Source: a virus
Length of the DNA stretch: 26,142 bases
IMG/VR virus record: IMGVR_UViG_3300000101_000048
Location: 12,957 to 39,098 of that record
Reading direction: 5' to 3' (one strand)
In this document: piece after piece, positions 733 through 2,325 of the stretch
How the letters are laid out: the number at the start of each line of letters is the position of its first letter
Position numbering within the stretch: position 1 is the stretch's first letter
Translations under genes and position numbers: made by a program
The notes under the pieces: model-generated
What the model was told of the DNA's origin: nothing
Seen by the model: only the letters and a program-made list of their open reading frames with translations
The model's database searches: none

Positions 733-959
733 AAGATTTAGTATTAAATGATTATTGAAATTGCGGGTACTATGCTTCTTATCCTATAGAAGGAGAGACA
801 TAAACTACCCATGTAGTATTGTTGTGTGTAATAGCTACTCTTGTAGTAGTGTTAGCTATATTAATATATTAATGTGCTATAGAAGTTATAGTAGTGGTAA
901 AAGGTGGTATTATGTGGGAATAAGATGTCCCATTGAAAGTATAACACACACATGAGTAC
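733..959. other. Non-coding leader upstream of the lipoprotein operon
   Basis: No convincing gene lies here; the only open frame over 60 codons (plus strand, 755-955) has no family-like or signal features. The stretch contains small potential hairpins: ATAGCTA (831-837) with TAGCTAT (853-859), and CTATA with TATAG near 878-895. On the minus strand, about 50 nt before the lipoprotein start, a CTCTCC...CTATAG segment (about 784-803) weakly resembles the promoter-like element found three times further right. The operon promoter is probably here, but no clean consensus can be read. Confidence 0.4.
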
Positions 960-998
960 AAAATAAAAAGATTAACCAGCTATCACCCTGGCTAATCT
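960..998 (-). terminator. Rho-independent terminator of the 1021-1356 gene
   Basis: On the minus strand AGATTAGCCAG (998-988) can pair with CTGGTTAATCT (979-969), an 11-bp stem with one mismatch and an 8-nt loop. It is followed directly by TTTTTATTTTG. It lies 22 nt past the stop of the leftward gene at 1021-1356, in the right orientation for its 3' end. Confidence 0.8.
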
Positions 999-1020
999 CA
1001 TTATCTCTTGGTTTACTAAA

Positions 1021-1356
1021 CTAAACTGCTTCTACCCACTTTAAATCTGTTTCTTCACCTGTTGATAGGTTCATTACTGGATTATCAGACAATCTAAAGT
1101 TAGGCATCTCATCACCTCTCTTTAGTTTGGTCTGTAATAGACCTATTGTAGGGTGATCTGCTTTCATAACCTGTCCAGTCTCTGGATCCATCAGGCTTAA
1201 CACACCAAAATTAATGTTGGTCTGCTTTCTACTTGCCACTTTTAAACCGGCTATAGTAGTTTCTGACTGTACCATTGGCACATCAGATACAATTAATGTT
1301 GCACTGTTAGTATTCTTGTTGATACTAAACTTTCTAAAATAAACTGCTGTTTGCAT
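1021..1356 (-). CDS. Left-arm paralogue A, 111 aa, unknown function
   Basis: This is a soluble, single-domain protein with no signal peptide or membrane segment. It aligns over its full length with the neighbouring gene at 1742-2071. Shared blocks in order are VYFRK (residues 5-9), a beta-rich SATxIVSxxPM segment, TxIAGLxVA, FGVLSLxDPxT, QVMKAxHPTI, GDEM and a C-terminal W-V-E. The pattern suggests an OB-fold or other small beta-barrel. Such proteins in phages often bind single-stranded DNA, but no diagnostic motif proves that here. The gene has its own promoter-like element (1400-1422) and terminator (960-998), so it is expressed as a single unit. An abundantly made early protein is a reasonable guess; I do not recognise the family. 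Confidence 0.8.
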   Translation of the reverse strand: MQTAVYFRKFSINKNTNSATLIVSDVPMVQSETTIAGLKVASRKQTNINFGVLSLMDPETGQVMKADHPTIGLLQTKLKRGDEMPNFRLSDNPVMNLSTGEETDLKWVEAV

Positions 1357-1399: not shown

Positions 1400-1422
1400 C
1401 AATCTATAGGTGGGGAGAAGTG
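1400..1422 (-). promoter_or_regulatory. Promoter-like element, copy 1 (before paralogue A)
   Basis: Read on the minus strand this is CACTTCTCCCCACC then TATAGATTG, 44 nt upstream of the paralogue A start. The same 23-nt block, with identical internal spacing, occurs at 1676-1698 and 2132-2154, with 19 of 23 bases shared between each pair. The 3' part (TAnnTTG) resembles the Bacteroidota -7 element TAnnTTTG. The C-rich 5' part is not a standard -33 box, which suggests a phage-specific promoter or an activator or operator site. Confidence 0.6.
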
Positions 1423-1509: not shown

Positions 1510-1669
1510 TACAAAGAGTGTTGTTACACACTCTCTTCTTAATATATGCTTGCACCAACCTTAACGGTCTGCACATCCTACCTTGTAGGATAATGCGTGT
1601 TTTGTGGCTTGTTAACTAAACACCAAGTCTGAACTACGTCTAATCCATTCCATGCAAGCATAATTATTA
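1510..1669 (-). ncRNA. Candidate small structured RNA of about 150 nt
   Basis: GCTTGCA (1659-1653 on the minus strand) can pair perfectly with TGCAAGC (1554-1548), closing a domain of 112 nt. Inside are a very stable hairpin, ATCCTAC-AAG-GTAGGAT (1591-1575, flanked by GCA/TGC), and a GTGTTT/AAACAC helix (1623-1618 with 1602-1597). The region has its own upstream promoter-like copy (1676-1698), which would place the start near 1669, and a downstream hairpin at 1515-1534. It matches no RNA family I can name. A T-loop and 3' CCA are absent, so it is not a standard tRNA. It could be a regulatory or decoy RNA, or a long leader of paralogue A. The strand is inferred from the flanking signals. Confidence 0.42.
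1515..1534 (-). terminator. Hairpin, possible 3' end of the candidate small RNA
   Basis: On the minus strand AGAGTGT (1534-1528), a 6-nt loop and ACACTCT (1521-1515) form a perfect 7-bp stem, followed by TTTGTACC. The T-tract is short, so termination may be partial. The loop sequence GTAACA also occurs in the terminator loop of paralogue B. Confidence 0.45.
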
Positions 1670-1675
1670 AAGTAA

Positions 1676-1698
1676 CAAAATAAAGGTTGGGAGAAGTG
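1676..1698 (-). promoter_or_regulatory. Promoter-like element, copy 2 (before the candidate RNA)
   Basis: Minus-strand CACTTCTCCCAACC then TTTATTTTG. It has the same length and spacing as the copies at 1400-1422 and 2132-2154. It sits just beyond the paralogue B terminator and before no open reading frame, pointing instead at the foldable RNA region 1548-1659. Confidence 0.55.
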
Positions 1699-1741: not shown

Positions 1742-2071
1742 TTAGATTTGTTCAACCCAAAACAAGTTCTGGTTCTCCTCACCAGTCTGTAAGTTCACAA
1801 CCTTTTGCTCACTTAACTTGAAGCCTTTCATCTCATCACCAAGGTTGAGCTTCTGCCCCAACGCTGTGATTGTTGGATGACTAGCCTTCATCACTTGGTT
1901 AGTGTCAGGGTCAATGAGACTCAACACACCAAAAGATAAGTTACCTTGAGTACGAGTTGCAACAGGTAGTCCAGCAATGGATGTCTTGTTGTTTGACATT
2001 GGAGCTGAGCTCACAATGATAGTTGCTGAGCCAGTTGACTCATTGATGTTCATTTTTCTAAAGTAAACCAT
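1742..2071 (-). CDS. Left-arm paralogue B, 109 aa, unknown function
   Basis: This is a full-length paralogue of the protein encoded at 1021-1356; by eye roughly half of the residues are identical. It keeps every conserved block: MVYFRK at the N-terminus, SATIIVSSAPM, TSIAGLPVATR, FGVLSLIDPDTNQVMKA, HPTI, GDEM and a final WVEQI. There is no signal peptide, membrane helix or recognisable catalytic motif; the pattern of short alternating hydrophobic strands suggests a small beta fold. It is expressed leftward from its own promoter-like element (2132-2154) and stopped by its own terminator (1701-1732). Two retained copies with duplicated control elements suggest selection for dosage, or for divergent binding partners. 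I do not recognise the family. Confidence 0.82.
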   Translation of the reverse strand: MVYFRKMNINESTGSATIIVSSAPMSNNKTSIAGLPVATRTQGNLSFGVLSLIDPDTNQVMKASHPTITALGQKLNLGDEMKGFKLSEQKVVNLQTGEENQNLFWVEQI

Positions 2072-2325
2072 AATAAAAATAATTTAAAAATAATTAATTA
2101 ATGTGGATAATTACGGGGGGTACCCCAACCACAAACTAAAGGTGGGGAGCAGTTTTATTATGGCATCTCAAGCACGCCAAATATATAATTTTGCCAGGAC
2201 CGGGAGGGGGGTATGGAATATATTTTACTCAGGCGGGGGGTATGTTATGAGTAAAAAATTTTTATGGGTCTGGGAAATTTAGTATATTGTTTGTATAGAC
2301 GCAGTGTAACTAAAACAATTAAGAT
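2072..2325. promoter_or_regulatory. Divergent control region with G-tracts and inverted repeat
   Basis: This gap separates leftward from rightward genes. Within otherwise AT-rich DNA it carries GGGGGGTA three times, at 2115-2122, 2206-2213 and 2235-2242. The first copy is part of the palindrome GGGGTACCCC (2117-2126). The third lies in the 16-nt loop of a perfect 9-bp inverted repeat, TTTTACTCA (2223-2231) and TGAGTAAAA (2248-2256). A minus-strand TATATTTG (2185-2178) matches the Bacteroidota -7 box but lacks a -33 partner. On the plus strand TATTGTTTG (about 2284-2292) is a weak -7-like match before the gene at 2326. An operator, a replication origin or both are possible. Confidence 0.5.
2132..2154 (-). 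promoter_or_regulatory. Promoter-like element, copy 3 (before paralogue B)
   Basis: Minus-strand AACTGCTCCCCACC then TTTAGTTTG, 61 nt upstream of the paralogue B start. It is the third member of the 23-nt family at 1400-1422 and 1676-1698. The constant distance between the C-rich block and the TAnnTTG block argues that both parts are read together by one protein. Confidence 0.58.

What the first reader, a model, noticed from the sequence alone, without database searches (positions are those of the whole stretch)
1510..1669. Candidate small RNA with its own promoter copy and end hairpin
A 112-nt domain closed by a perfect 7-bp helix (1659-1653 with 1554-1548) contains a 7-bp/3-nt hairpin and a further helix. 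Promoter-like copy 2 is at its 5' side, and a 7-bp hairpin with a short T-run is at its 3' side. The unit is bracketed like the two protein genes that flank it, but has no credible reading frame. A phage regulatory or anti-defence RNA would look like this.
Basis: partly seen in the sequence, partly recalled or inferred. Interest (0 to 1): 0.7.

Follow-up and report, generated by a model that had tools for sequence, protein, structure and literature searches.

The report
Swappable structured RNA in marine phage
A marine crAss-like virus of bacteria very probably makes a small folded RNA from a swap-in slot between two replication-type genes, where close relatives carry other folded RNAs or tiny genes; no such RNA family is in the reference library searched, and its job is unknown.

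Summary
On the minus strand, 1671-1538 folds at -43.1 kcal/mol (z -5.2, 0 of 1500 shuffles). It is a five-way junction closed by a 10-bp perfect helix plus 6 more pairs. A 14-nt motif found 3 times in the window (0 in 100 shuffles) precedes gene 1, the RNA and gene 2, always on one strand. A hairpin follows.

The key evidence is L035, a near-identical relative. Its flanks match at 92/92 and 794/797 bases, yet window 1701-1534 (motif + RNA) is replaced by 504 other bases: a putative second RNA and two small ORFs. So the unit is an exchangeable cassette. Other relatives have nothing, small ORFs, or other candidate RNAs in the slot. One of these (family B) shows compensatory changes in its closing helix and recurs, with a near-identical core, in phages whose terminases are only 26% identical to the window's.

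The window RNA has no diverged homologue in the collections searched, so its own covariation cannot be tested. No Rfam match, no tRNA, no antisense target above chance. Best reading: a stand-alone, trans-acting structured RNA carried as phage cargo. An anti-defence role is plausible but untested.

The parts
1538..1671 (-). Structured RNA domain 'A' (five-way junction)
   Evidence: MFE -43.1 kcal/mol, z -5.2, 0/1500 shuffles
1653..1671 (-). 5' strand of closing helix (10 bp perfect 1662-1653 + 6-7 bp 1671-1665)
   Evidence: pair probabilities mostly 0.8-1.0
1538..1554 (-). 3' strand of closing helix
1630..1647 (-). Arm P2: 1647-1641 with 1636-1630
   Evidence: pair probabilities 0.91-0.97
1597..1623 (-). 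Arm P3: 1623-1618 with 1602-1597, least certain long arm
   Evidence: pair probabilities 0.71-0.83
1571..1596 (-).
   Evidence: pair probabilities 0.94-1.0 apart from one lower pair at 0.51
1557..1569 (-). Arm P5: GACC/GGUU hairpin
   Evidence: pair probabilities 0.7-0.99
1684..1697 (-). Promoter-like motif copy 2, ACTTCTCCCAACCT
   Evidence: 3 in window, 0 expected; one strand only in 9 records
2140..2153 (-). Promoter-like motif copy before gene 1
1408..1421 (-). Promoter-like motif copy before gene 2
1513..1536 (-). 3' hairpin, GUAACA loop, weak T-run; probable terminator belonging to the flank
   Evidence: kept in L035 without the RNA; same hairpin with long T-run in L088 and L099
1707..1732 (-). 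Terminator of gene 1, left edge of the slot
   Evidence: identical in L035
1534..1701 (-). Exchangeable cassette: motif + RNA, replaced by 504 nt in L035
   Evidence: blastn: flanks 92/92 and 794/797 identical
1742..2071 (-). Gene 1 (109 aa), OB-fold SSB/PriB-like by predicted structure (weak match)
1021..1356 (-). Gene 2 (111 aa), paralogue of gene 1 (60% identity)
1578..1661 (-). 27-codon ATG frame inside the RNA (rival reading)
   Evidence: sequence; no credible tblastn relative

Best explanation
The unit is a cassette for a stand-alone structured RNA of about 150-160 nt. It is transcribed on the minus strand from a phage-specific promoter (motif copy 2, 1697-1684). The start lies a few bases downstream, near 1675, and the end at or near the hairpin 1536-1513. 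It folds into a five-way junction closed by a long helix and acts in trans. The cassette sits in a cargo slot between two paralogous OB-fold (SSB/PriB-like) genes, bounded by terminator hairpins, where related crAss-like phages exchange small ORFs and other structured RNAs. Shown: the fold statistics, the motif, the exchange between near-identical genomes, and the presence of other candidate RNAs in the slot. Inferred: transcription, the ends, and trans action. The most likely role is binding a host factor during early infection, such as counter-defence, host take-over or exclusion of rival phages; this is inferred only from the fast turnover.
For: Fold z -5.2, 0/1500. One-strand motif ahead of gene 1, RNA and gene 2, 0 expected. 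The closing helices of RNAs A, B, C, E and H start about 5-12 nt after the motif (read by eye). L035: flanks 92/92 and 794/797 identical, RNA cassette replaced by 504 nt. Relatives: empty slot (L003-L007, L011, L016, L028), small ORFs (L008-L010, L018-L020) or other candidate RNAs. Family B: 10 of 30 pairs with compensatory changes, 20 cells vs 6.7 in shuffles, 0/500, slid controls far lower. B occurs once per record, in several gene neighbourhoods, with a near-identical core between phages with 26% terminase identity.
Against: So its structure lacks covariation support. The 3' hairpin has a weak T-run. No transcript data. Promoter identity rests on conservation, not on a known polymerase. Several sister RNAs (D, E, H) have unremarkable fold z-scores.
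Confidence: 0.68

Rival explanations
1. The segment is a small protein gene: the 27-codon ATG frame 1661-1578 encodes a peptide, and the fold is incidental or stabilises the mRNA.
For: The ATG follows TTTAATAATT, like the AT-rich leaders of the phage's genes. Related slots do hold small ORFs.
Against: The start codon lies inside the near-certain closing helix. It is 23 nt after the motif against 36-69 nt for protein genes read here. No credible tblastn relative (best E 7). A 27-codon frame is common by chance, and the stop falls inside the P4 hairpin.
Confidence: 0.12
2. It is a cis-acting leader or attenuator of gene 2: the branched domain senses something and the weak hairpin controls read-through into gene 2.
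For: It lies upstream of gene 2 on the same strand, and the following hairpin is a weak terminator.
Against: Gene 2 has its own motif copy at 1421-1408, after the hairpin. In L035 the RNA is gone while the hairpin and gene-2 region stay 794/797 identical. Empty slots keep gene 2 with its motif. Family B recurs beside unrelated genes.
Confidence: 0.1
3. The fold is a chance product of a spacer, and only the motif and hairpin matter.
For: A itself has no covariation. 29 windows of the record rank above it in the grid scan.
Against: 0/1500 shuffles; several higher-ranking intergenic windows are ordinary terminators. A spacer would not need its own motif copy and would not be exchanged as a unit.
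Confidence: 0.1

Closest known systems
RNA anti-CRISPRs (Racr), phage RNAs that mimic CRISPR repeats (from general knowledge)
   Same: Small stand-alone RNA carried as phage cargo; would act in trans against a host system
   Different: Racr RNAs are repeat mimics; A is a 134-nt branched domain. The host and its repeats are unknown, so mimicry could not be tested
Accessory ('moron'-type) phage cassettes: single genes with own promoter and terminator (from general knowledge)
   Same: Promoter-to-terminator unit, presence/absence and exchange between near-identical phages
   Different: The cargo here is most likely an RNA, and the slot alternates between RNAs and small ORFs
Structured phage RNAs in Rfam 15
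   Same: Intergenic, strongly folded RNA in a phage genome
   Different: No Rfam family matches the window at gathering scores, or the slot regions of 18 loci at E<=1 beyond two sub-threshold hits outside the slot RNAs
Slot RNA family B (this study: L014, L015, L020-L027, L240-L268)
   Same: Same slot and motif in P0001-type phages, closing helix directly after the motif, branched domain
   Different: No sequence or structure match between A and B (R1 and R2 do not cross-match)

Membership tests
Any Rfam 15 family | Match at or above gathering score | tested here: not met
   0 matches in the window; L001, which holds the RNA, has none at E<=1
tRNA / tmRNA | ARAGORN-detectable cloverleaf or tmRNA | tested here: not met
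   0 genes in the window and 20 related loci
Slot RNA family B | Match to covariance model R2 | tested here: not met
   R2 finds no match in G000
Trans-acting phage small RNA | Significant folded domain | tested here: met
   z -5.2, 0/1500
Trans-acting phage small RNA | Own promoter-like element and 3' end signal | tested here: inconclusive
   Motif significant; 3' hairpin present but weak T-run and shared with the flank
Trans-acting phage small RNA | Detected transcript of the predicted size | not testable with these tools
   No RNA data held
Trans-acting phage small RNA | Covariation of helices among homologues | tested here: inconclusive
   Only identical copies of A exist in the collections searched
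Antisense sRNA on phage mRNA | Complementarity to a target beyond chance | tested here: not met
   Longest complement 12 nt, as in shuffles (10-15 nt); host targets not tested
RNA anti-CRISPR (Racr) | CRISPR-repeat mimicry of the host's system | not testable with these tools
   Host unknown, no repeat library held
Crassvirales-type phage (host genome of the RNA) | Terminase and portal related to crAss-like phages | tested here: met
   Terminase E 2e-29 to NC_055900 and Flavobacterium/Bacteroides crAss-like phages; PHROG terminase and portal

The most novel reading that the evidence does not exclude
Environmental crAss-like phages carry an exchangeable library of at least half a dozen unrelated structured RNAs (A, B, C, D/E, G, H and others) as accessory genes, swapped at terminator hairpins, and these RNAs act on host or rival-phage machinery as RNA-based counter-defence or exclusion factors.
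Probability: 0.3. Interest if true: 0.82.

Novelty: new variant of a known kind. Interest (0 to 1): 0.57.

Why it matters
Phage accessory loci are usually mined for small proteins; searches for anti-defence genes skip intergenic RNA. A slot in which otherwise near-identical phages exchange folded RNAs for small ORFs suggests that RNA is ordinary cargo in this abundant phage group. It gives a defined place to look for RNA effectors: between the two SSB-like paralogues.

Tried and rejected
The hits that nhmmer then linked weakly to A lie, in seven loci, in what reads as one conserved coding segment (judged a terminase by eye), so they were dropped. Three more patterns in viral contigs and one in genome contigs found no new copy. 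CM R1 on 42 loci and 62 whole records: only the window. blastn in annotated phages: no match for A, B or H. Antisense targets in the phage record: no excess over shuffles. Shared origin of A with family B: not supported. MAFFT of the slot could not place the insertion uniquely, because both flanking hairpins are alike; the L035 blastn solved this. A full z-score scan timed out and was replaced by a residual scan. Literature searches gave no paper describing this slot.

Full report
What is there. The window is bases 12957-39098 of a 39-kb viral record. Its terminase and portal place it among crAss-like phages, distant from isolates (<60% identity; best E 2e-29). The finding lies on the minus strand between two paralogous genes, 2071-1742 (109 aa) and 1356-1021 (111 aa), 60% identical. 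AlphaFold2 gives the first a confident mostly-beta model (pLDDT 86); Foldseek's best, non-significant matches are mostly PriB and SSB proteins (E 0.09 at best). So they are probably OB-fold single-strand-binding proteins; this is a lead, not proof.

The RNA. 1671-1538 folds at -43.1 kcal/mol against -26.1 +/- 3.3 for dinucleotide shuffles (z -5.2, 0/1500). It has a closing helix of 10 perfect pairs plus 6-7 more across a 2-nt bulge, and four arms: P2 1647-1641/1636-1630, P3 1623-1618/1602-1597, P4 1596-1571, P5 1569-1566/1560-1557. Pair probabilities for P1, P2 and P4 are mostly above 0.9; P3 is the least certain long arm. The opposite strand folds less well (-34.0; z -3.1 for 1546-1661). In a grid scan of the record the region is in the top 1.2%; several stronger intergenic windows are ordinary terminator hairpins.

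The signals. ACTKCTCCCNNCCT precedes gene 1, the RNA and gene 2. It occurs 0 times in 100 shuffles. In nine records of this group (the window's own included) it occurs 2-5 times, always on one strand, with no hit for the reversed control; five more distant records have none. In RNAs A, B, C, E and H, the closing helix starts roughly 5-12 nt after the motif (read by eye), whereas protein genes start 36-69 nt after it. That suggests a compact promoter whose start site abuts the RNA; which polymerase reads it is unknown. The 3' hairpin 1536-1513 has the GUAACA loop seen in many terminators of these phages, but a weak T-run. The same hairpin stem and loop with a long T-run is found in L088 and L099.

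The slot. Thirty-five loci with gene 1 relatives, then 79 with a nine-protein profile, were read. After gene 1 the content varies: nothing but terminator and next promoter; small ORFs ending in similar terminators; or non-coding segments that look like RNAs (B, C, D/E, G, H, I, J, M). The decisive case is L035. Its first 92 bases are identical to window 1793-1702, and its 597-1393 matches window 1533-737 at 794/797. Between them, window 1701-1534 (motif plus RNA A) is replaced by 504 bases holding a possible hairpin RNA (z -2.1, weak) and two small ORFs. The break-points are the two terminator hairpins. So motif and RNA travel together, while the 3' hairpin belongs to the flank. Another contig (L149) is 99.93% identical over 12,233 bases and keeps RNA A unchanged.

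A sister family with covariation. Family B occupies the same slot in L014, L015 and L020-L027, behind the same motif. Its core was found in 29 viral-contig stretches and in no genome contig. In ten representatives, 10 of 30 pairs show changes on both sides (20 cells against 6.7 in shuffles, 0/500), mostly in the closing helix, and slid controls collapse. Each of the 15 matching records has one copy, in several different gene neighbourhoods. The core is nearly identical between records whose terminases share only 26% with the window's and those at 87%, as expected for horizontal exchange. Folding statistics alone support C and G2 strongly, B moderately to strongly, J moderately; D, E, G and H are not clearly better than shuffles, so their RNA nature rests on conservation and inspection.

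What could not be shown. RNA A is known only from the window and its identical copy. Its own covariation is therefore untested. It matches no Rfam family and no tRNA, does not match family B, and shows no antisense excess against the phage record. Transcription and function were not observable.

Interpretation. A stand-alone trans-acting RNA cargo fits best (0.68). A 27-codon peptide gene (0.12), a gene-2 leader (0.10) and a chance fold (0.10) remain. Exchange of the cassette between near-identical phages resembles the turnover of accessory genes for host conflict; counter-defence is the most attractive role, but it is inference only.

Noticed in passing
740-1000, minus strand: Long non-coding element downstream of gene 2 (..TATTAATATAGCTAAC..CTATAGGATAAGAAGCATAGTACCCGCAAT). 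A 60-nt probe from it gave 90 nhmmer hits across the fetched loci, many redundant, so it is far more conserved than the RNA slot. Possible RNA, origin or leader.
   Followed up: partly
L014:3498-3589, L240:1545-1660, L246, L253, L262 and others: RNA family B: branched RNA with covarying closing helix and near-invariant core, one copy per record, in deeply diverged crAss-like phages; no Rfam match in the loci scanned.
   Followed up: yes
L081:2839-2899, L084:2866-2939, L112:1425-1485, L272, L273: Candidate RNA family H (TTGACACAGTTTGCCT..ATGGACATCAGGC..AACCAACGAGTGTCAA) in several contexts. Conserved core, but fold z only -0.5.
   Followed up: partly
L027:4402-4487, L021:4491-4576, L081:3166-3250, L080:2867-2940: Candidate RNA family G sharing AAACATTAAATTGGRT with variable hairpin parts; the L080 member folds at z -4.9.
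   Followed up: partly
L027:3405-3623, L030, L008-L010, L262:3717-3935: Small slot ORFs share a C-terminal tail like IDRxFQEDMIxD while the N-terminal part differs between phages, which suggests modular shuffling.
   Followed up: no
1395-1404 and 1486-1495: 10-bp inverted repeat GTATACAATC/GATTGTATAC and related GTATACnnTCC repeats around the gene-2 promoter; possible operator sites.
   Followed up: no
L035:1394-1736 compared with window near 737: A second exchange between the same two near-identical phages: L035 carries about 340 extra bases just after the conserved element downstream of gene 2.
   Followed up: no
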